Virus record (IMG/VR): IMGVR_UViG_3300031787_000103
Location: 1 to 64,000 of that record
DNA from: a virus
DNA: 64,000 bases
Direction: 5' to 3' (one strand)
Part shown: positions 7,909-53,112 of the stretch, piece by piece
Layout of the letters: each line of letters opens with the position of its first letter
How positions within the stretch are numbered: position 1 is the stretch's first letter
Translations under genes and position numbers: made by a program
The notes under the pieces: generated by a model
What the model saw: only the letters and a program-made list of their open reading frames with translations
Databases searched by the model: none
What the model was told of the DNA's origin: nothing

Positions 7909-8247
7909 ATGAAAGTACAACTCAAAGGCACTGTTGTAAGTGTCGACATCAAAAAAGGAACTTCCAAGAAGGGTTCTGAATGGAAGTCAAAAACAATCGT
8001 CCTTGAAACAGGCGACAAGTACAAAGAGTATTACCCCGTTGAGTTCGGAGGCGACAACTTCGACAAAGCAGACGGTATTCGTAACGGCGACAACGTAGAA
8101 ATCGAAGGCTACCTCGGTGGTCGAAAATGGGAGAAAGACGGCAAGACTTCTTACTTCCTCAGTGTCCGTGGATTTGAGGTTGCTATTCAGGGTAGTGCGG
8201 CTAAATCAAGCGGTCAGCCTATGGAAGAATCGCCTCTCCCCTTCTGA
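7909..8247 (+). CDS. OB-fold single-stranded DNA binding-like protein (DUF3127 type)
   Basis: 112 residues with the beta-rich pattern of an OB fold (VQLKGTVVSVDIKKGTSKKG, later GDNVEIEGYLGGRKWEKDGK) and a disordered C-terminus ending in ESPLPF. The acidic-hydrophobic tail resembles the last residues of bacterial SSB (DDIPF), which recruit partner proteins. This layout matches the DUF3127 group common in Bacteroidota and their phages. ATG 7909 is chosen over an in-frame TTG at 7888 because the TTG overlaps the -7 box. It is transcribed alone, between its own promoter and a strong terminator, which suits a protein needed in quantity. Confidence 0.7.
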   Translation: MKVQLKGTVVSVDIKKGTSKKGSEWKSKTIVLETGDKYKEYYPVEFGGDNFDKADGIRNGDNVEIEGYLGGRKWEKDGKTSYFLSVRGFEVAIQGSAAKSSGQPMEESPLPF

Positions 8248-8271
8248 TGTAGCAATTATTCCTCTATTATA

Positions 8272-8324
8272 GCCCCTGCCTCACCTCGTATCTGCATTAC
8301 AGGTGACCGCAGGGGTTGTTTTTT
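8272..8324 (+). terminator. Intrinsic terminator after the SSB-like gene
   Basis: CCCCTGC (8273-8279) pairs with GCAGGGG (8309-8315), and an inner CACCT/AGGTG pair extends the stem. A run of Ts (TTGTTTTTT) follows. Confidence 0.8.
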
Positions 8325-8368
8325 GCAGATTTTTAACAAATAACTTTTGGTGGTGCAGTTTCTTTTAC

Positions 8369-8376
8369 TATATTTG
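8369..8376 (+). promoter_or_regulatory. -7 box for the replication operon
   Basis: TATATTTG with ACTTTTGG about 20 bp upstream as the -33 element. The first ATG (8391) is 14 bases downstream. Confidence 0.6.
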
Positions 8377-8390
8377 CCGTGCCACCAAGT

Positions 8391-8498
8391 ATGAACACAA
8401 CTAATCATACCCTCACCCGTCCCGCACACGCCGTAACAGGCGGCTTGGTGGCCCTTGCTCGCGGTTCGTGGTGGGGGTTCAACTTTTCAATCACATGA
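8391..8498 (+). CDS. Hypothetical 35-residue leader protein of the replication operon
   Basis: First ATG after the promoter. The frame encodes 35 residues, Thr/His-rich then with a Trp-Trp-Gly segment, and its TGA overlaps the ATG of the nuclease gene (ATGA). The overlap suggests translational coupling. It may be a short functional peptide or only a coupling leader. Confidence 0.45.
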   Translation: MNTTNHTLTRPAHAVTGGLVALARGSWWGFNFSIT

Positions 8499-9181
8499 AA
8501 AAAACAACAGGTGGTTTGCTTAAATTCAACAAGGAGGCGGTTCTTCGTGACTTCCTTTACGACTCAATTAAGTCTGCGATAGACAAAAAGGACAACAGCA
8601 TTATTCAACAAAGGGGACTTGAAGATTTGTTCTGCTTTATGGAGCGGACATCTAAAAATCCACTTGCAGAACTAAAGGTTTTTAAGGAGTTTGTAATACC
8701 TCATTATGGTGTTTGTGATGTCGTAGTAGTAAAAAACGATTTTCTGATTACAGGCAATGAAATACTTCCATACGAGCAGCAGGTGTCCATATACGCCATA
8801 GAAGTTAAAAATGATTACATTGAGCCTAAACACTACAATCAAATATTGAGATATGTAGTTGGTCTTTCCGATTCTTTTTCTTTTTACGAGATTAGGTCTT
8901 GTATAATTGGAACTGGAATGAAGGAGTCGCATTATCTGTGTACTGCTCTAAATCAGTTGTGGAGCGAATATGACGACTCAAAAAACATTCCACTCACATA
9001 TGAGGCATCGTTTGACTTGAACGGAGTTATGTTTAAGTTGCATGAAGGGTTTAGACCGTCTGCAATTCAAAACGAAGATGATTATTGGAGTTTTTGTATT
9101 GACCACTATCGCTCGATTGGGGCTATAAAGAACATTTCGGTTGAGGAAAAAGAAGAAATGCTAAAGACGTTAGAACAATGA
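8495..9181 (+). CDS. PD-(D/E)XK nuclease-like protein
   Basis: 228 residues. Asp75 in YGVCDVVVVKND and Glu103/Lys105 in YAIEVKND form the D...ExK core of PD-(D/E)XK nucleases, each on a predicted beta strand, with an upstream helix holding a Glu. Such proteins cleave or process DNA; in a replication operon it could be a structure-specific or exonuclease-type enzyme. The start ATG 8495 overlaps the preceding small frame, and the stop overlaps the next gene by four bases. The exact subfamily is not recognised. Confidence 0.6.
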   Translation: MKKTTGGLLKFNKEAVLRDFLYDSIKSAIDKKDNSIIQQRGLEDLFCFMERTSKNPLAELKVFKEFVIPHYGVCDVVVVKNDFLITGNEILPYEQQVSIYAIEVKNDYIEPKHYNQILRYVVGLSDSFSFYEIRSCIIGTGMKESHYLCTALNQLWSEYDDSKNIPLTYEASFDLNGVMFKLHEGFRPSAIQNEDDYWSFCIDHYRSIGAIKNISVEEKEEMLKTLEQ

Positions 9182-33384: not shown

Positions 33385-33614
33385 AAACCACTACCCCGAA
33401 GAAGATAAGGGCTTTCCCATACGAGCGTTTGAGCCGTGCCCTTGCCTACTTTGAGGACATCGACATGAACCCAAAGAGTGCTATCAAGACCTTCATGCCT
33501 ACAAAGAGAAGGTTAATGCAGAAGTTGGACTACGATACCTATGACATGGAAGTGCTTGAAGCGCTTGAGGCTGTTATTGAGAAGTTAAATTCATTGCACG
33601 GCTCGAACGGGTGA
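33381..33614 (+). CDS. Hypothetical helical protein
   Basis: 77 residues, basic and helical. The last codons lie within a perfect dispersed-motif copy (33597-33607), and the tmRNA promoter starts here. Unrecognised. Confidence 0.55.
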   Translation: MKTTTPKKIRAFPYERLSRALAYFEDIDMNPKSAIKTFMPTKRRLMQKLDYDTYDMEVLEALEAVIEKLNSLHGSNG

Positions 33615-33616
33615 TG

Positions 33617-33624
33617 TATATTTG
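33617..33624 (+). promoter_or_regulatory. -7 box of the tmRNA promoter
   Basis: TATATTTG, 19 bp before the mature tmRNA 5' end, with CATTGC about 20 bp upstream and a dispersed-motif copy between. Confidence 0.5.
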
Positions 33625-33643: not shown

Positions 33644-33949
33644 GGGGCTGACTGGATTTGACAGTCGGAAAGAAGAATGTAGTTCAGGCAGGTGGCGACC
33701 TTACGCACAAGTCAGAAACGACAACAATGTGATTCCTATGTTCCCTTCGTGGAACGGTGTTCAGGCAGCAGCGTAAGCTGTTCACGGCAACAGAAAACCT
33801 GAAAATGTTTGTCCGAACGTAAAACGGACTGGTGGACACCTCCGGCGATAAGTCGAGGCCCTGTTTGCGGGTATGTCAAACCCGATAAGCCTGTAAGAAA
33901 ATGAATTTTGGAAACCGATTGGACGTGGGTTCGACTCCCACCAGCTCCA
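33644..33949 (+). ncRNA. ssrA: tmRNA (transfer-messenger RNA)
   Basis: The 5' end GGGGCTGACTGGATTTGAC and the 3' end GTGGGTTCGACTCCCACCAGCTCCA are classic tmRNA termini. GGGGCTG (33644-33650) pairs with CAGCTCC (33942-33948), and GTGGG/CCCAC closes the T-arm with TTCGACT. The CCA end is not fully encoded. The tag frame starts after the conserved AGTC: AGA AAC GAC ... (33714) and ends at TAA 33774-33776, giving RNDNNVIPMFPSWNGVQAAA. It aligns with the ANDENYALAA type at NDxN and the terminal Ala run. tmRNA rescues stalled ribosomes and tags the unfinished proteins for proteolysis. Confidence 0.9.
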
Positions 33950-33954
33950 CTAAA

Positions 33955-34118
33955 GGACGGGTGTCGTGGATTAACACCCACAGACAGTGTATCGCGCGTA
34001 TGTTGCGGGGGGCCCAACTCAGGGATGACAGAGCACCAGAGGACAACCGTTAAGACAACCACTTCGCGTGAATGAGGAGACAGAGATGTTACCGTAGGCA
34101 GAACGCCCTACCCCGTCC
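33955..34118 (+). ncRNA. Candidate structured RNA downstream of tmRNA
   Basis: GGACGGG (33955-33961) is complementary to CCCGTCC (34112-34118), which would close a 164-nt domain five bases after the tmRNA. Inside, GGGTGT/ACACCC (33959-33979) forms an alternative hairpin. No convincing protein frame is present. A terminator follows at 34141. Confidence 0.3.
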
Positions 34119-34140
34119 AAAAATTAGTGTTTCACTGACA

Positions 34141-44649: not shown

Positions 44650-47600
44650 TTAATCCTCCGCATAGCCTTGTATCAACTCTTTTTCTTTTTTCAGGTACTT
44701 AGCCTCGGCATCGTAGTAGTTAATCGGCACACGAAGGTTGTTGTTAACATAGAACTGATACACGGCGTAATTTCTTGCCTTGGTATTGATGTCGTTAATA
44801 GTGGCTTTCATCTTTTCGCGGTAGGATTCCTCCTCCAAAATGTCCTGTGCCTTGCGACGGATATTCTCGTTGGTGAGCATAATACCCAAATCCGACAACT
44901 GCTCCTCGGCCATCCTTACAATCCTTTCCTGACGTGCGGGCGTGACCTCGTAATCCGACGTTGGCACGGGGTTCTCGGCCCAAATTTTAAGAAGGTGGTC
45001 TAAGTTTTCGCCTGTCATTTTGCTGACCTCGTAGAACTGCTCATCGCTCATCGGAACGTAATCTCCGTCCTCCATTATCCGGTATGCCTCACCGCCCCTG
45101 TTTGGCCCTGCAATCGAAGGGTTGTACGTGAAAACAAGCCTATCAACCTCATCCACCTTAATGGCGTCTTTGAACATCTTTACGAACCCGTCTGCACTTG
45201 AGGTGTAAATTTGGCCCGTGTCGTAGGTTTTGCCACGGTAATCAAGCGCCGGACGGTCAATCATAGGCTGCAAAAGCCCTGAGTATTTCATCAGTTGCTC
45301 GGCAAATGTCACGGGTTTTTTGGCCTCGGCGTCAACTAATTGCCCTGCCTGACGGAAGAACGAAGTCGCAGGAATGGTCATTCTCGTAGAATACTCCGCA
45401 GAAAGTCTCTTGAGCATTGCAGAAATCTTCCTGTCGTCTCCACTTTTCAGATAATTTGTAGCCTCTGTGAGTATTCGTCCCGTCTGCTCAAAGTACATAT
45501 TGTTCAGCGCCGCAGAAAGAACCGATAAGGCTATAAAACCTTCCTTGTTGTATCTCTTGGCATCTTCAAGCGCGGCCTTGGTTTTCAGGTTCACGGCAAA
45601 AGGCCCGAACCAATCAAGGCTGATGTTGTTGCCATTGATTCGGATGGTGTTAGCGGGGCGCATTTTGGATATATTCTGAGCCTCTTTCCAATTTTCCGGC
45701 CCTTCGCCAAAGATCATCTTCATTTTTTCTTCCTCGTCGTCGTCTGCAGCCGCAAGAATAAGTGCTGAAATAAGCGCCCCAACCGCCGCACGGTAGTAAT
45801 ACTGTCCGGCCCTGCGAAAATCGTAGTCGCTTTCAATACCCTTAGACTTATTGTATCCGGCCATCGCGGTGTATGCCGCCGCCTTAATACCTCCGTACAC
45901 AGGTGTTAACTCCATTGACTTCTCAAGGATATTCGACACCGACTTCACGAACGGAATAAGAAAGTCCATAGTGGCTTTCCACATGAACTCACCAAGTTCA
46001 AGCGCACGGATAGCGTTAGGGTTCTTTGTCTTGCTCTTAACCTTCCTGATCGCTCGTGAACCCGCTTGCTTAAACTCATTTACCGCAAGTCCGATACTTG
46101 AAAAAAAGAATGGGTCGGTTGCCTTGTAAGTCGTTCTATTTCCATAGAACTGCTGCGCCCGAAGAACATCCTCGCCCCTCTTTTGCTCTATAATCTCATG
46201 CACACGGCGGTTGTAGCGCGTCCGTCCGGCAAAGTCGGTAATGTCTATACCCTTTTCGGCGTATTCTTTTTCAGCTTGTTTCTCTGCTTCGTTAATCTCA
46301 ACGGCAAACGCGGCCTCGTAAGCCCTGCGGTTTAACTCCTTGTTGCTCATGTACGGGTTGGCACGGCGCAACTGAGCCTTAATGTAGGTGTAAGCCTCGC
46401 TTTCTTCGGCTATTACTTGGTTGAACGTATCGAAAGCCGACATAAACCGCATGAACGGTCTTTCCATTATGCCTGAGTACCCGCCCAACTTGTGAAACAG
46501 CCCAACGTCCTTAAACGCCATGCGCGGATTTTCCATGTAACGAACCGAAGGTGAACCCTCTTTGTTCTTGGTAATCTCACTCATTGCCGTTCCTTTGTCA
46601 ATGCCGCCACGCCAAAGAACGTCCATTGCCGTCCAAAAAGCCTTTTTATGTGCTTTTGTCACGGCGCGAAGTATCTCTTTGTCCCCGATACCTTGACGGC
46701 TAACCTGATTGACAAGCACGTTATATGTGGTGTCAATAACGGCGTCAATAGAACCCGTCATGTTCTTTAAGGCGGTCACAGGGCCACTCAAAAGACGGGC
46801 TTTCATGCGCTCAAGAAAAGCATTGGTCAAGAACTGCGGCGAACCCAAATATTCTAAGTACGCTTGCAGCCTCTCCTCAAGCCTTTCCTTTTCCGCTCCG
46901 GCGTCCATCGAGTCAATCTCCTCGACCAACTTTTCAATGCTCCGTTCATCTTCTTTTGAGAACGCAACAACCCCGAAGTCTGAGGCCAATTTTTCAAGAA
47001 CGTCCGCATCGGTTAAGCCACCCTGTTTCCATGTTTCCACAAGTCCTTGAATACGGGTGTTACGGCGCACGGCCTGACCGACGCCTCTCAAACGGCCTCT
47101 TTTGTAGGCTTCAACCTTTGTTTTAACCGCTCTTTTCTTCTTCTCAACCACAATCCTATTGGCCTCTGACTCAATAATAGGCATAATGGAAGCAAGAATA
47201 TCTGCGGGAATCCGGTCTTTCAACGCCTCTTTAATCTTTGCCACCACGGGCGCTGCGTCACGGCTATCGGTTGTTACTTTCTTCCAATCGACCTGCATTT
47301 TGCCGCCGACTTCTTTGCCGTAACCCGCATCAATCAAAGCTTCCTTAATCTGCTTTTCAAGCCCCTTTCCTTCCCATTTCTTTGCCTCGTCCTTAATCTT
47401 CTTCGCTGCCTCTCTTTCGGCTTTTTTAGCGGCTTTATCTAAGTCTAATTTGGCTTTCTTCGCGTTCTTCTCCTCCTCTAACTTAGCTTTCAGCGCCTCG
47501 CCTTCCTTATACATTTCCTCGGCAAGTTGAGTGACTACTTCCGGCGTATCGAATAGTTCGGCTTCAACCCCACGTTCAATCAAAGCCTCTTTAGCTTCTT

Positions 47601-50600
47601 CGTAGAGTTCCGCAAAATACTCCTCGTATTTACCCTTTGTGTCACGGCGCATTTTCTTGTAGAAGTCCGCGAACTTGTAGTATCCACTCTCAAGGTAGTA
47701 ACCCGAAGCGTAACTAAGGTACTCCCACACCTGCGGGTCAAGGAACGGGTTTGCGGCTGCTTTGCCAAATGCCTTTCGGCGAAGTTCGTCTAATTTCTCA
47801 CGCTTGAACGATCTTTGCTTCTGAGGTTTTCCTGCTTTTGGCTCGGACTGAATCTTCTTAATCTTGTCCTCAAGTTCCTTGATAATCCTGTCCTTTTCGG
47901 CAACGGTTTCACCCAAAATTCGGTTAACCGCCTCCTCGACCGCTTCGGCCATCTCGTCCTTGCTATCAAGGGTTTTAGCTACATCTTTGGCCGCTTTCTG
48001 AGCATTGGGCGCAAATATCTTGTTTCGCTTTTCAATTTCTTTTTTTGACTTGCGAACAATAGAATATGCGCTGTTTTCATAAATGCTTTCTATGTAAGAA
48101 TTGTAGCGACCGTATGCCGTGGCCTTAGCCGCCAACTTCTCTTTGACATCAAGTTGATAGTCGGCCCATTTATCCTTCTCGTTTACCGTCTTAGCCTTTT
48201 GGCCTTGTTCTTTGGCATAGATCAACGCCTCGCCGTAAACAAGCGACTGCAATTCTACCGGAACAGGTGAATTGGGTCTATCCGACAACGAAACCGCATC
48301 TTCTATACCTAAATCCGCAATAATTCCTTTCGCAAGGTCACGGGCGGCTTCGATGCCCAATGTTTCGTAGTAGGAACGGTCGTCGGCCAATAACGCATCT
48401 TTGGTCTCTTGGTCAAGATCGCTTCGGTTAACATAGGCTTCGATAACACCTCTTAGTTTGCGCTGTGGCGTTTCTTTCTTCTCCTCCTTCTCCGGTGTAG
48501 GCGGAACGTAATCGTCGCCGACCTTTTCGGATACACGGGATTCAATATTCTTTACATCGTCGGGTTCAAGCGCCTTGTACTCGTCGGACTTTCGCCACTC
48601 CGCAAGTGCTTGGGCCATGTTGTCAACGGAACGAAGAACTTTGGCAAGTGCCCTCGCCGCTGCTGCAACCGCCGCCGCATTTGCGCCTAACGAACCGCCT
48701 AATTCATCGGCAAACGAATCCAAGTCGTCGGCTAACTTTTGGAGTTTTGACGGCTTCTTTGGCTTTTCTTTTGAAACGGAAGGGGTCTCTCCCCCTCCGT
48801 CGGTCGCAGTCACCTCTACTGCGGGCTGCTCACTAATGTTTACTTCATCGACACGTTCTTCTTTCATGTCGATTTTTTCTCCTTTTTTCGACGCGTCCGG
48901 TGCAAGCAAATCCTCAACCGCCTTTACAAGTTCGGGGTTGCTTCCGTCTTTCTTTGCGGCGTGGTAGGCTTCGGCAAGTGCATTAGCATCGCCGTTATTA
49001 TTTTGGATGAACCTATAAAGATTAGTGCCAACTCTCCCTCCTTTTGTGTCAGTTAAAACAAACGCCCTGTCTAATGAAGGAGAATAAACTATTGGGTCTC
49101 CATTTGATTCACCAACCTTATACCATCCGTCCCCAATATCCTTAGCCCCCATACGAAGCGCCTTATCCCATGAGTTATTCTCATTGTTGGCGGCTATGAC
49201 ATCGTTGCTTTTTGGATTAAATTCCCGCGCGGTTGCTGTGTCTGTTATTTTTGTTTTTACGGGCACTTTTTTCAGCGCATTCGCCGTACTTTCAACGTCT
49301 TTAAGCGCGTCCGGTACACCTATACCTTGACCTTCTGCCTCTGTCGGTAAAGCTGTGGGTTGACTTTGTGCAAGAATATCGGCAGGACTCTTTTTGCCAT
49401 ACAATCCCAATGACTCAATCAACTCCTTTTTATCTAACTCAAACTGAGTCGGCTTGTTTTTGCTTCTTCCAGTTGGTTCAGTGTAATAAGAAGGGTCTGA
49501 TTTGAAACTTGGAAAGAAAACAGGGATAGACCTTTTTGCGTTACGCTTATTTTTTTCTCCTTCATGCAACTCGAAAGACACCGTTTTGCCCGCGTTATCC
49601 TTACGAACAAAAAGACGAGCGCCTGAAAATTGCCCTTTAATTTTATCAACAAAAGACTCAACATCCTTATCATAATCTATTTCAACCTCTCCTTCACCTC
49701 TTGCAACGTCAACGGCGGGTTGTACTCCTTCTCCCCCTTGTCCGACTTCACCTTCTGTAATCGTAGGTCGAACGCCTCCATCAACCTCAGTATCGCTTGC
49801 CTGTGCTGTTTCATTTGTCCTGTTTTTTAGTAAATTAACTGGACTTTCTTCGCCCTGTATTGCTTCTGTGGCGGGCATTTCAACGGCTTCACCTGCCTGT
49901 GGTCGCTCCGTTACTTGGTCGGTCGGTTGGTCGGTTACTTGGTCGGCAACCCCCTCACTTTCTTTGCTTGACTTTACCTGTTTTTCAATTTTTTCATCGT
50001 TGTAAATCGCAATAGTTTCAGGTGTTTCTTGAAACTTATTAGCCCCAAGGCCTAAATTGTCGGGATAGTAGTCCCAACTCTCCCAAACATCTTCCTTTAT
50101 CCTTATTCCATCGTATCCTAATTTTTTAGTAAGCCATTCAATGTGATTTCCCTCTATTTTTTTTCCGTATCTAAGAATGTCAGAAACATACTTGAAATCT
50201 GAAAGATTTTTGTCACTAAACGACAAAATAGTATCATCCCTTAAACCCGCTTCTTTCAGCAATGGTCTAATCAACAACGGATTTAGCTTATCGTTAGCGT
50301 TCAATATTCTTGCGTCAGGACTTATTGATACTTCGTATACGTTTCCAACACCCTCATCGACATCACCGTCTTTTGACTCCCTTAGTGCTTTGTTTTGCTT
50401 TGCAAGATGACTAAAAAGTTTAGCGGCATCTTTATTGTTTGTTAAGTAAACAGCGTCACCGAGAGTGCCACTATTCCAACCTACTGCTGAATTAGATTTT
50501 TGAGCGGTCAATTTGCCTTCTAACTCTACGGCAGTCCCGTGATAAAACACGTTGTCTTTCGCTTCTGTCTTATCCCCCTCACTTTCGAGGGGTTTAACTT

Positions 50601-53112
50601 CCATTTCTACCTCTACCGCCGCCTCTTGCGGTTCTGCTTTGGCTTTGTTTGCTTCTTCGGAGAGTTCGGTAGGCGTTTTGCCTGTGTCCAAAATAGTCTT
50701 GACCTCGGCCTCGATTGCGGCTATTTCGGCTAATGTGGAGTCGGGTTTTACACCCACTACTCGCATAGACTCCTCTAACTTTGCCTTACGGTCAAGTTCG
50801 CTTAATACATGGGCCTTTTTTTCACGGCTCAAACGCTCGAAATTCGGCTGTCCTTTCAACCCCTGCAACTTCTCGCTCAACTCATCGGCCATTTCCTGAG
50901 CCTTGACTTGAGTTTCAGCATCCGTCACATCGGCAACCGTGCCTATCATTTGAGGCGTTTCGGCCATTGTAAGCATTACATCTTCCGTCGCACCGCTTCG
51001 TGGCTTTTGAAATTGAGCCATAAACCTCATGCCGCCACCCGTTAAAAGACCCGCAAACGCTTGTTCTGCTATTTTTTCAGGGTTAAATGTATCCTTGTAA
51101 AAGTCCTCACTCTTAACGGCATCAAAAACCTCACGGGCTGCATCACCCGCAATAGCAATAGCGCCCTCTTCTCCAAACTCCTCTACCGCCCCCGCCGAAA
51201 TATCCTTCATCGCCGCAACCACATTGTCCTTGATAGCCTTTTGCATACTATCTCCGGCTTGTCTTTGAGCGATAATACCTTTTCTGAACTTCGGCGCATC
51301 AAAGAATTTAAGGTCGGACACGATATATCCTTCCAAAACAGCCTCAACGCCGCCTATTATTTTTGATGTTAGCTTAGCCTCTGTCACGTCCATTCCGGCT
51401 GCGATAGCTTCTTCGTAAGCCATTGGCTCACCCATAAGAAACGCTGTTGCCGAAGTAGCCGCCCGTGGAATACGCATAGCAGAACCCGCAACACCACCAC
51501 CCGCAAAAAGAGTAGCCGACCCAAGGCCTTGCCCCAAAAGGTACGGTGTCTTTTGAAGGATTGACATATTCTCCCACGTTTTCGGGTCGTAGGGCTGACC
51601 TACAATATCGGTTGCGTATTTGCCGTAATTGTCGGCGTAGTTGTATAACCTATCAACCCAAGTGTATTCACCGCGACCCTCTTCTCCTTCAAACATTGTT
51701 TTAGGGAACTTCATCGCGCTTGCAAGACCCGTGTTAATAGACTCGCTAAATGAATAGATGGTAGCCGGAACTGCACCCTCACCCTGTCTTTTCATTCTTA
51801 CAATATCGGCTCCCATTTCCTTTTCGGCAACATCGTAAAAATCGTCCGCTACACGCTCAAGTTCTATGTCTGTAGACCGCATTGAACGGTAGATGTTCTC
51901 TGCCTGATCTACAACGTCCGGCGTGACGCTTGTTTCCTTTTCAAGCGCCTTGTACTTCTGACTAAGCAAAGCAACCTCGCTTGAAAGAATATCGTATCTT
52001 TTCTTTGACTCAACCGTAAGCGGCGACTCCGAAATCTTGTTTAACTCGTCAACCTTTTGGTTTAGCTGCTCGATGATTAGCGGTGCTTTTGCAAAGTATT
52101 GGTTAATATCGTGGTTTGACTCAAGTTCATACAACTCGGCTTTTTTAGCGGCGTAGTAAGTCCCAAGCGCCTCCCTCTTGAAATCAACCATAAATCTTTG
52201 CTCGCCCTCACTGATACTACCCGTACCCTCTTTTTCCATTTTCTCCGAAATAGCACGGTACTGAGTTTCTTTGTCTTTGGCAAGTTCGGGCCGTGTAAAA
52301 CGGAGGTAATTAATATACTGCTCGTCAACGGCCTTGAGGGAACTGTTAATCTCTGATTCAACCGCTTGAGCCGTGACCATATCGTCTGCACCTTTAGCCT
52401 CTTTTAGCCTTTTTTGAGCGTCGACAATATCGAAGTCAACCATTATGTCCTGAGCGCGTCGATAGCTGTCTGCAAGTGGTTTTACGGCCTCGTAATCGGC
52501 TCTTTTTTTGGCTATAACCTGAGCCGTTGGGTCTCTTTCTATTTCGGCTTTGCGCTGTACAATACCCCTTACGACGGGTTCTGCCGCTGCGGATGCCTTA
52601 ACTGCCTCTTGTGCTGTTAGCTCTTTTCCTGCGGGCATGGTTTCAGCGCCTTCCATTTGTTCGGCCTCTGACATAAACCGTGGGCCTTGACCGGACGTTG
52701 GGACTTCCGTGACTATTTCGGTATCTACTACCTTGTCAACGGTCTTTTCGGGTGCCTTACGGCGTCTTGCTGCCTCTGCGGCCATTCGCATAAGGCGCAT
52801 TTCCTCCTTTGCGGAGTCGTCGCCTTGCGCTACACGGGTTGCTAATTCTGAAAACTTACGGGTATCAACCGTCGATACGGTCTGCGAAGCGCCTGAGCCA
52901 ACTTGCGAAACGGGCTGCGACGGTTCTTTTTTTTTTACAAGCGAATCGTAATCGGAATAAGCGCCAAACACTTTCTCGCCTCCGAGGTTATCGTACACGT
53001 CTTTTCGGTACGCGCTGTCCTCCGACATAAGCGATTTGAAATCATCGTACTTTCCGAATACGCCCTCACCTCCGAGGCCGTTGTAAATATCTTGCAGGTA
53101 CTTTTCGTCCAT
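44650..53112 (-). CDS. Giant polyvalent virion protein with ART-like domain
   Basis: 2,820 residues. Residues 8-58 hold two copies of an IYxxLGGExVFGxYxDxxSL repeat. Residues about 520-700 are Gly/Ala-rich and hydrophobic. Residues about 855-1045 look like an ADP-ribosyltransferase-type ART-PolyVal domain (VFYHGTAVELEG, LGDAVYLTNNKDAAKLF, LGYDGIRIKEDVWE, ETIAIYNDEKI). Long charged coils follow. The C-terminal third (near YKATDPFFFSSIGLAVNEF, a hydrophobic segment at about 2435-2456, and RMTIPATSFFRQAGQLVDAE) resembles domains of large polyvalent proteins. Such proteins are packed in the virion and ejected with the DNA. Enzyme activity is inferred from pattern. Confidence 0.65.
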   Translation of the reverse strand: MDEKYLQDIYNGLGGEGVFGKYDDFKSLMSEDSAYRKDVYDNLGGEKVFGAYSDYDSLVKKKEPSQPVSQVGSGASQTVSTVDTRKFSELATRVAQGDDSAKEEMRLMRMAAEAARRRKAPEKTVDKVVDTEIVTEVPTSGQGPRFMSEAEQMEGAETMPAGKELTAQEAVKASAAAEPVVRGIVQRKAEIERDPTAQVIAKKRADYEAVKPLADSYRRAQDIMVDFDIVDAQKRLKEAKGADDMVTAQAVESEINSSLKAVDEQYINYLRFTRPELAKDKETQYRAISEKMEKEGTGSISEGEQRFMVDFKREALGTYYAAKKAELYELESNHDINQYFAKAPLIIEQLNQKVDELNKISESPLTVESKKRYDILSSEVALLSQKYKALEKETSVTPDVVDQAENIYRSMRSTDIELERVADDFYDVAEKEMGADIVRMKRQGEGAVPATIYSFSESINTGLASAMKFPKTMFEGEEGRGEYTWVDRLYNYADNYGKYATDIVGQPYDPKTWENMSILQKTPYLLGQGLGSATLFAGGGVAGSAMRIPRAATSATAFLMGEPMAYEEAIAAGMDVTEAKLTSKIIGGVEAVLEGYIVSDLKFFDAPKFRKGIIAQRQAGDSMQKAIKDNVVAAMKDISAGAVEEFGEEGAIAIAGDAAREVFDAVKSEDFYKDTFNPEKIAEQAFAGLLTGGGMRFMAQFQKPRSGATEDVMLTMAETPQMIGTVADVTDAETQVKAQEMADELSEKLQGLKGQPNFERLSREKKAHVLSELDRKAKLEESMRVVGVKPDSTLAEIAAIEAEVKTILDTGKTPTELSEEANKAKAEPQEAAVEVEMEVKPLESEGDKTEAKDNVFYHGTAVELEGKLTAQKSNSAVGWNSGTLGDAVYLTNNKDAAKLFSHLAKQNKALRESKDGDVDEGVGNVYEVSISPDARILNANDKLNPLLIRPLLKEAGLRDDTILSFSDKNLSDFKYVSDILRYGKKIEGNHIEWLTKKLGYDGIRIKEDVWESWDYYPDNLGLGANKFQETPETIAIYNDEKIEKQVKSSKESEGVADQVTDQPTDQVTERPQAGEAVEMPATEAIQGEESPVNLLKNRTNETAQASDTEVDGGVRPTITEGEVGQGGEGVQPAVDVARGEGEVEIDYDKDVESFVDKIKGQFSGARLFVRKDNAGKTVSFELHEGEKNKRNAKRSIPVFFPSFKSDPSYYTEPTGRSKNKPTQFELDKKELIESLGLYGKKSPADILAQSQPTALPTEAEGQGIGVPDALKDVESTANALKKVPVKTKITDTATAREFNPKSNDVIAANNENNSWDKALRMGAKDIGDGWYKVGESNGDPIVYSPSLDRAFVLTDTKGGRVGTNLYRFIQNNNGDANALAEAYHAAKKDGSNPELVKAVEDLLAPDASKKGEKIDMKEERVDEVNISEQPAVEVTATDGGGETPSVSKEKPKKPSKLQKLADDLDSFADELGGSLGANAAAVAAAARALAKVLRSVDNMAQALAEWRKSDEYKALEPDDVKNIESRVSEKVGDDYVPPTPEKEEKKETPQRKLRGVIEAYVNRSDLDQETKDALLADDRSYYETLGIEAARDLAKGIIADLGIEDAVSLSDRPNSPVPVELQSLVYGEALIYAKEQGQKAKTVNEKDKWADYQLDVKEKLAAKATAYGRYNSYIESIYENSAYSIVRKSKKEIEKRNKIFAPNAQKAAKDVAKTLDSKDEMAEAVEEAVNRILGETVAEKDRIIKELEDKIKKIQSEPKAGKPQKQRSFKREKLDELRRKAFGKAAANPFLDPQVWEYLSYASGYYLESGYYKFADFYKKMRRDTKGKYEEYFAELYEEAKEALIERGVEAELFDTPEVVTQLAEEMYKEGEALKAKLEEEKNAKKAKLDLDKAAKKAEREAAKKIKDEAKKWEGKGLEKQIKEALIDAGYGKEVGGKMQVDWKKVTTDSRDAAPVVAKIKEALKDRIPADILASIMPIIESEANRIVVEKKKRAVKTKVEAYKRGRLRGVGQAVRRNTRIQGLVETWKQGGLTDADVLEKLASDFGVVAFSKEDERSIEKLVEEIDSMDAGAEKERLEERLQAYLEYLGSPQFLTNAFLERMKARLLSGPVTALKNMTGSIDAVIDTTYNVLVNQVSRQGIGDKEILRAVTKAHKKAFWTAMDVLWRGGIDKGTAMSEITKNKEGSPSVRYMENPRMAFKDVGLFHKLGGYSGIMERPFMRFMSAFDTFNQVIAEESEAYTYIKAQLRRANPYMSNKELNRRAYEAAFAVEINEAEKQAEKEYAEKGIDITDFAGRTRYNRRVHEIIEQKRGEDVLRAQQFYGNRTTYKATDPFFFSSIGLAVNEFKQAGSRAIRKVKSKTKNPNAIRALELGEFMWKATMDFLIPFVKSVSNILEKSMELTPVYGGIKAAAYTAMAGYNKSKGIESDYDFRRAGQYYYRAAVGALISALILAAADDDEEEKMKMIFGEGPENWKEAQNISKMRPANTIRINGNNISLDWFGPFAVNLKTKAALEDAKRYNKEGFIALSVLSAALNNMYFEQTGRILTEATNYLKSGDDRKISAMLKRLSAEYSTRMTIPATSFFRQAGQLVDAEAKKPVTFAEQLMKYSGLLQPMIDRPALDYRGKTYDTGQIYTSSADGFVKMFKDAIKVDEVDRLVFTYNPSIAGPNRGGEAYRIMEDGDYVPMSDEQFYEVSKMTGENLDHLLKIWAENPVPTSDYEVTPARQERIVRMAEEQLSDLGIMLTNENIRRKAQDILEEESYREKMKATINDINTKARNYAVYQFYVNNNLRVPINYYDAEAKYLKKEKELIQGYAED

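What the first reader, a model, noticed from the sequence alone, without database searches (positions are those of the whole stretch)
33644..33949. Phage-encoded tmRNA with an unusual 20-residue tag
Both termini, the acceptor pairing and the T-arm are clear. The tag frame reads RNDNNVIPMFPSWNGVQAAA: it keeps the NDxN start and the Ala-run end, but inserts about ten residues including Pro, Trp and Met, and uses AGA (Arg) as resume codon where most bacteria use Ala or Gly. A longer tag with a non-YALAA end could alter recognition by host ClpXP or SspB, sparing or redirecting tagged proteins during infection.
Basis: partly seen in the sequence, partly recalled or inferred. Interest (0 to 1): 0.75.

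Follow-up and report, generated by a model that had tools for sequence, protein, structure and literature searches.

The report
Phage tmRNA with extended degradation tag
A freshwater virus of Bacteroidota-type bacteria carries its own ribosome-rescue RNA (tmRNA), which would add a 20-amino-acid tag to stalled proteins, about twice as long as the 8-10-amino-acid tags sampled from such bacteria, and it turns out to be one of many phage tmRNAs with stretched tags.

Summary
Window 33644-33952 scores 85.7 bits against Rfam tmRNA (cut-off 47); ARAGORN misses it. It is a one-piece tmRNA with a G3·U wobble in the acceptor stem and a perfect T-arm. Its tag frame is AGUC|AGA...GCA GCA GCG UAA (RNDNNVIPMFPSWNGVQAAA). 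A diverged homologue (L091, another IMG/VR phage) confirms both RNA and frame: 56 consensus pairs, 16 with compensatory double changes, none broken, and a 19-residue tag ending in the same Ala-Ala-Ala-stop through partly synonymous codons. The virus most likely infects a Bacteroidota host; 42 Bacteroidota-type host tags are 8-10 residues and start with Gly, Asp or Ala. No SmpB gene is present, so host SmpB must serve. Nothing shows sparing or redirection. Long tags recur in phage tmRNAs: relatives carry 19, 22 and 27 residues, and a separate family carries 34-43-residue tags (44 distinct) on a strongly folded reading frame, translated by codon evidence. The window tmRNA is a new variant of a known kind; why phage tags lengthen is open.

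The parts
33594..33624 (+). candidate Bacteroidetes-type promoter TTG-N20-TATATTTG, ending 19 nt before the mature 5' end
   Evidence: Pattern found. Not enriched window-wide (6 seen, 5.65 expected); only the position is telling. Inference.
33644..33949 (+). one-piece tmRNA (ssrA), mature RNA up to the discriminator A; CCA not encoded
   Evidence: RF00023 85.7 bits; 16 of 56 consensus pairs compensated against L091, none broken
33644..33650 (+). acceptor stem 5' strand GGGGCUG (pairs with 33942-33948; contains G3-U)
33662..33668 (+). helix 2, 5' strand CAGUCGG (pairs with 33915-33921); three pairs compensated in L091
33691..33708 (+). short pseudoknot-1-like region GGUGGCGACCUUACGCAC
   Evidence: By eye; low pairing probability. 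Inference.
33710..33713 (+). AGUC, frame-setting sequence with A at -4 (A86 equivalent) directly before the resume codon
   Evidence: sequence; A at -4 in 42/42 host tmRNAs; A86 role, PMC2481249
33714..33773 (+). tag reading frame, 20 codons: RNDNNVIPMFPSWNGVQAAA, resume codon AGA
   Evidence: homologous 19-codon frame in L091
33740..33755 (+). hairpin inside the tag frame (GUUCC-CUUCGU-GGAAC)
   Evidence: Pairing probability 0.92-0.94 in the constrained fold, but the tag frame alone is not more folded than shuffles, z +1.56: weak
33767..33782 (+). hairpin AGCAGC-GUAA-GCUGUU, with the tag stop UAA (33774-33776) inside a GUAA tetraloop
   Evidence: GUAA loop kept in L091 with a compensated pair
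33811..33829 (+). conserved hairpin GUCCG/CGGAC followed by UGGUGG
   Evidence: 3 of 5 pairs change on both sides across window, L091, L105, L230; 100% of cells paired
33925..33941 (+). T-arm GUGGG-UUCGACU-CCCAC
33955..34121 (+). GC-rich segment after the tmRNA whose ends pair (GGACGGG/CCCGUCC); perhaps a co-transcribed structured RNA; not part of the tmRNA
   Evidence: Fold z about -2.2; rank 7 of 201 windows; no Rfam match. Weak.

Best explanation
This is a working tmRNA gene of a tailed phage that most likely infects a Bacteroidota bacterium. Mechanism: the phage transcribes the RNA, probably from its own Bacteroidetes-type promoter. Host enzymes trim it, add CCA and charge it with alanine (G3-U). 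Host SmpB delivers it to ribosomes stalled on broken mRNA, which are expected to be plentiful when host mRNA and DNA are degraded in infection. The ribosome switches to AGA and adds A-RNDNNVIPMFPSWNGVQAAA, then ends at a UAA held in a hairpin loop. The ribosome is freed, and the tagged fragment is degraded by host AAA+ proteases that read the C-terminal Ala-Ala. The added middle residues are a loosely constrained spacer: both ends of the frame are kept between homologues while the middle has diverged. Shown here: RNA identity, fold, tag frame, homology, tag length against hosts, no SmpB gene in the record. Inferred: expression, charging, ribosome rescue, degradation, and benefit to the phage.
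For: RF00023 85.7 bits. Diverged homologue L091 alignable end to end, with 16 compensated and no broken pairs out of 56. Shared hairpin covaries in four phage tmRNAs. L091's frame has the same codon count from the resume codon to AAT GTG and the same Ala-Ala-Ala-stop (GCG GCT GCG TAA against GCA GCA GCG TAA). Ala-Ala-Ala-stop is rare by chance, 4/4946. Bacteroidota host: the identical 31-nt 3' end occurs in 13 genome contigs, 12 labelled Bacteroidota; TerL is nearest to Flavobacterium, Cellulophaga, Maribacter and Tenacibaculum phages. No SmpB gene. Phage tmRNAs are known (PMC9004378; PMC4131195). The E. coli degron ends in Ala-Ala-COO- (PMC10638403).
Against: No RNA or protein data. At -5 the base is A, a change (U85A) that lowers activity and raises -1-frame reading in E. 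coli (PMC2481249). The AAA end is not LAA; changes at these positions can slow degradation in E. coli (AAV is slower; PMC9382460). Pseudoknots are not well defined. Host identity is indirect. The tag middle could be selected in ways that two sequences cannot show.
Confidence: 0.68

Rival explanations
1. The longer tag redirects tagged proteins to another protease or adaptor (for example Lon, through the hydrophobic/aromatic VIPMFPSW stretch), as the long Mollicutes tags are read by Lon.
For: Long tags exist in Mollicutes and are read by Lon (PMC9382460). The insert is rich in hydrophobic and aromatic residues. The host-type YALAA end is replaced.
Against: No significant similarity to the M. 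florum tag (p 0.16; that tag sequence was from memory). The middle is not conserved in L091 (VPVIEMITEMR), which lacks Trp and Phe. The C-terminal Ala-Ala is kept.
Confidence: 0.13
2. The RNA mainly acts as a competitor: it occupies SmpB and stalled ribosomes and replaces the host tag, so that tagged products are stable or slowly degraded.
For: A phage tRNA-like-domain-only molecule (DS6A type) resembles one that inhibits tmRNA, perhaps by titrating SmpB (PMC4131195). Non-LAA end and A at -5 could weaken normal function.
Against: The message domain is kept, with compensatory changes throughout and a conserved Ala-Ala-Ala-stop. A pure competitor would not need them.
Confidence: 0.1
3. The tag is long because an RNA element (a hairpin or small domain) is carried inside the reading frame for the RNA's sake; the extra peptide is a by-product. 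(Compatible with the best explanation; it concerns only why the tag is long.)
For: A hairpin can form in the tag frame of window, L091, L105 and L230. In the separate 34-43-codon family the tag frame is far more folded than shuffles (mean z -3.9, 44 of 44 negative).
Against: In the window itself the tag frame is not more folded than shuffles (z +1.56). In the other family there is also codon-level selection.
Confidence: 0.25
4. A decaying remnant of a host tmRNA captured at an integration site.
For: Bacteroidota-type 3' end; ssrA is a common prophage attachment site (established knowledge).
Against: Full-length gene, compensated fold against another phage tmRNA, and a phage-lineage hairpin shared with L091, L105 and L230. 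No integrase was noted among the proteins scanned, but this was not searched exhaustively.
Confidence: 0.04

Closest known systems
Bacterial one-piece tmRNA (Rfam RF00023), Bacteroidota type
   Same: Ends, acceptor with G3-U, T-arm, helix 2, tag frame, stop in a hairpin; same 31-nt 3' end as 12 Bacteroidota genome contigs
   Different: 306 nt against about 350-405 nt; tag 20 against 8-10 residues; Arg resume codon; AAA end; A at -5
Phage-encoded tmRNAs already reported (mycobacteriophages, Bacillus phage G, Streptomyces phages, Melnitz, crAss-like phages)
   Same: tmRNA carried by a tailed phage, host SmpB needed
   Different: Annotated Streptomyces phage tags are 11-13 residues with ALAA ends; Melnitz is a two-piece, Alphaproteobacteria-type tmRNA
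L091, L105, L230 phage tmRNAs (IMG/VR, found here)
   Same: Shared covarying hairpin and ACTGGTGG; long tags of 19, 27 and 22 residues
   Different: Tag middles and resume codons differ (GGC, AAC, GGA)
Mollicutes tmRNA tags (Mesoplasma florum)
   Same: Long tag
   Different: End in NYAFA and are read by Lon (PMC9382460); no significant similarity

Membership tests
tmRNA (RF00023) | Covariance-model score above the curated cut-off | tested here: met
   85.7 bits against 47
tmRNA (RF00023) | tRNA-like domain: acceptor with G3-U, T-arm, no anticodon arm | tested here: met
tmRNA (RF00023) | Internal tag frame with A at -4 before the resume codon and a non-polar Ala-rich end | tested here: met
tmRNA (RF00023) | Conserved fold shown by compensatory changes | tested here: met
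   16 of 56 pairs, none broken (fold derived from the same two sequences); 3 of 5 pairs in the shared hairpin
tmRNA (RF00023) | Four pseudoknots | tested here: inconclusive
   PK1-like region by eye only; weak in the fold
tmRNA (RF00023) | Alanine charging, SmpB binding, ribosome rescue, tagging | not testable with these tools
   needs experiment
tRNA-like-domain-only phage RNAs (DS6A type) | Message domain absent | tested here: not met
   full message domain and tag frame present
Two-piece (permuted) tmRNA | Permuted order, 3' domain first | tested here: not met
   RF04321 scores only 20-21 bits against 47; order is standard

The most novel reading that the evidence does not exclude
Phage tmRNAs as a class have evolved extended tags (18-43 residues) with a function beyond plain degradation, for example routing to another protease, carrying an in-frame RNA domain that controls how translation resumes, or giving the phage control over the fate of stalled products. 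The window RNA is one member of this class.
Probability: 0.2. Interest if true: 0.78.

Novelty: new variant of a known kind. Interest (0 to 1): 0.5.

Why it matters
Phages that bring their own ribosome-rescue RNA can replace the host's degradation tag during infection. If their tags are systematically longer and different, they give natural experiments on what ClpXP, Lon and the ribosome tolerate, and a testable question: does the phage want fast degradation, slow degradation, or another address? It also shows that a standard annotation tool misses or mis-frames these genes.

Tried and rejected
SmpB gene in the same virus: none. Close or intermediate relatives through TerL, the Holliday junction resolvase and the primase/helicase in IMG/VR: only near-identical copies of the same virus. 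Same tag or tmRNA in 50,697 phage records: essentially short T-arm/acceptor matches and no tag match. Similarity of the tag to known structures: none convincing. Similarity to the M. florum tag: not significant. Apparent similarity of the tag to L100 (NNVI) and L091: not significant as peptides; the L091 link rests on RNA homology. The L230 tag similarity (p 0.006, one of nine tests) was not relied on. Promoter motif: not enriched in the window, so only its position is used. Hairpin in the tag frame: kept as a rival only, because z is +1.56 in the window. Permuted tmRNA: rejected. A generic terminase search in long-tag contigs was uninformative.

Full report
CHECK OF THE OBSERVATION. Rfam's tmRNA model matches window 33644-33952 (+) over its whole length at 85.7 bits (cut-off 47), the only gathering-level Rfam hit in the window and the only tmRNA in the 65,391-bp virus record in which the window lies. 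ARAGORN calls nothing. The 5' end GGGGCUG pairs with CAGCUCC including the G3-U wobble that marks alanine acceptors (established knowledge), and the T-arm is perfect. Forcing the canonical acceptor, helix 2 and T-arm costs only 3.5 kcal/mol relative to the unconstrained minimum. CCA is not encoded (CUA follows), so host CCA addition is implied.

TAG FRAME. AGUC directly precedes AGA, as UAGUC precedes the resume codon GCA in E. coli; A at -4 is the base that sets the frame there (PMC2481249) and is A in 42 of 42 host tmRNAs. The frame reads RNDNNVIPMFPSWNGVQAAA-stop. An open run of 20 codons is expected often by chance, so length alone proves nothing. An Ala-Ala-Ala end does carry weight: 4 of 4946 stops in the window have it. 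One caution: the base at -5 is A, which in E. coli (U85A) lowers activity and raises -1-frame reading.

A HOMOLOGUE CONFIRMS RNA AND FRAME. In the IMG/VR scan for Bacteroidota-type 3' ends, locus L091 (IMGVR_UViG_3300050821_001709) holds a tmRNA that aligns with the window's from end to end. A consensus fold of the two gives 56 pairs, 16 of them changed on both sides and still paired, none broken. That fold was derived from these same two sequences, so it leans towards them, but the number of double changes is large. L091 reads GGC AAA ACT AAA AAT GTG ... GCG GCT GCG TAA, that is GKTKNVPVIEMITEMRAAA. It has the same number of codons from the resume codon to AAT GTG, the same Ala-Ala-Ala-stop by partly different codons, and the stop in the same GUAA loop; the middle has diverged. 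Two further loci, L105 (27-residue tag by eye, NTEKSTVMFVNREGDLIDTRTELKVAA) and L230 (22 residues, GSTKTEGRVISFRPTYATALAA), share a downstream hairpin with both, in which 3 of 5 pairs covary across the four sequences. L091 is a phage: the ORF next to its tmRNA is a terminase of PHROG 6681, the family of the window's terminase (direct BLAST 21% identity, E 2e-6). L091, L105 and L230 each carry a PHROG 298 exonuclease on the same locus.

HOST AND CONTEXT. The exact 31-nt 3' end occurs in 13 genome contigs, 12 labelled Bacteroidota; the thirteenth, labelled Competibacteraceae, has a near-Bacteroidota tag, GNTDNYALAA, and may be a mis-binned contig. The terminase is nearest to phages of Flavobacterium, Cellulophaga, Maribacter and Tenacibaculum. 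A Bacteroidetes-type promoter (TTG-N20-TATATTTG) lies just upstream, though the motif is no commoner in the window than chance. The virus has portal, terminase, RecT, exonuclease, Holliday junction resolvase and primase genes and no SmpB. The host therefore is most likely Bacteroidota, but is not named.

HOW UNUSUAL IS THE TAG? Forty-two host tmRNAs (13 with the same 3' end, one of them the doubtful Competibacteraceae contig, and 29 from the Bacteroidota phylum sample) have tags of 8-10 residues and resume codons GGC, GAC, GCG or GCA. So the window's tag is about twice as long and is not the tag of any host examined. Among phage contigs long tags recur: 18 (L100), 19 (L091), 23 (L101, L103, L108, L127, L143), 25 (L148), 27 (L081, L125) and 39 (L071) residues. 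Some of these contigs were not shown to be phage beyond their place in IMG/VR. A separate family carries 34-43-residue tags with a conserved core GDxSLxGLxIDWHLA and a QPxYAYAA-like end: 44 distinct tags. There ARAGORN usually reports a start inside the frame or nothing. These look translated: every length variant stays in frame, the other two frames are closed in 44 of 44, and on the 23 tags not selected by their core, pN/pS is 0.64 in frame against 1.13 and 1.28 out of frame. The frame is also strongly folded (mean z -3.9, all 44 negative), so part of the peptide conservation may reflect RNA. Two relatives of that backbone (L035, L082) have 9-residue tags.

MECHANISM. The best-supported reading is ordinary trans-translation by a phage-encoded RNA using host SmpB, with an extended tag that still ends in Ala-Ala, the terminal dipeptide bound by ClpX (PMC10638403). 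Redirection to Lon, sparing, or a competitor role are not excluded. A structural reason for the extension is plausible for the 34-43-residue family but weak for the window, where the tag frame is not more folded than shuffles (z +1.56).

PRIOR KNOWLEDGE. Phage tmRNAs are known: 402 of 18,146 phage genomes in 2021 (PMC9004378), and earlier mycobacteriophages and phage G (PMC4131195). Streptomyces phage tags seen in annotations are 11-13 residues. Seven literature searches found no report of systematically extended phage tags; the library holds only open-licence papers. I therefore rate the window RNA as a new variant of a known kind, with the wider pattern as the more interesting lead.

Noticed in passing
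L009, L011, L012, L047, L073, L075, L079, L088, L120, L146, L156-L191 and others: A family of phage tmRNAs whose tag frames encode 34-43 residues (44 distinct) with core GDxSLxGLxIDWHLA and end QPxYAYAA; strongly folded (mean z -3.9) yet with codon-level selection in one frame. ARAGORN mis-frames or misses them. Deserves its own study.
   Followed up: partly
L071 (tmRNA at about 8246-8630, - strand): tmRNA with a 39-residue tag ending ...AVVAEELELV, i.e. no Ala-Ala end; possibly a non-degradation tag.
   Followed up: no
L101, L108, L127: Related phage tmRNAs with 23-residue tags GENPF(F/Y)(V/I)LAGL..VE.AEVAL(A/V)A, conserved in sequence; two of the contigs are over 100 kb.
   Followed up: no
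L035 and L082 against L146 and L079: Same tmRNA backbone with either a 9-residue tag (GNTANYAYA) or a 38-residue tag, suggesting gain or loss of a whole in-frame module.
   Followed up: no
window 33955-34121: GC-rich segment right after the tmRNA with pairing ends (GGACGGG/CCCGUCC) and no evident gene; perhaps a second co-transcribed RNA. Fold z about -2.2; no Rfam match.
   Followed up: partly
L232, L233, L235-L237, L239, L241: Permuted (two-piece) tmRNAs with GK/GE/GA-type tags (e.g. GEQVEMAMAA) called by ARAGORN in phage contigs that share the Bacteroidota-type 5' end GGGGCTGACTGG.
   Followed up: no
L021 (JACSSC010000017.1): MAG labelled Competibacteraceae carries a Bacteroidota-type tmRNA; likely a mis-binned contig.
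   Followed up: no
window 44650-53112 (-): 2820-residue ORF with no Pfam or PHROG match; large virion- or injection-type protein candidate.
   Followed up: no
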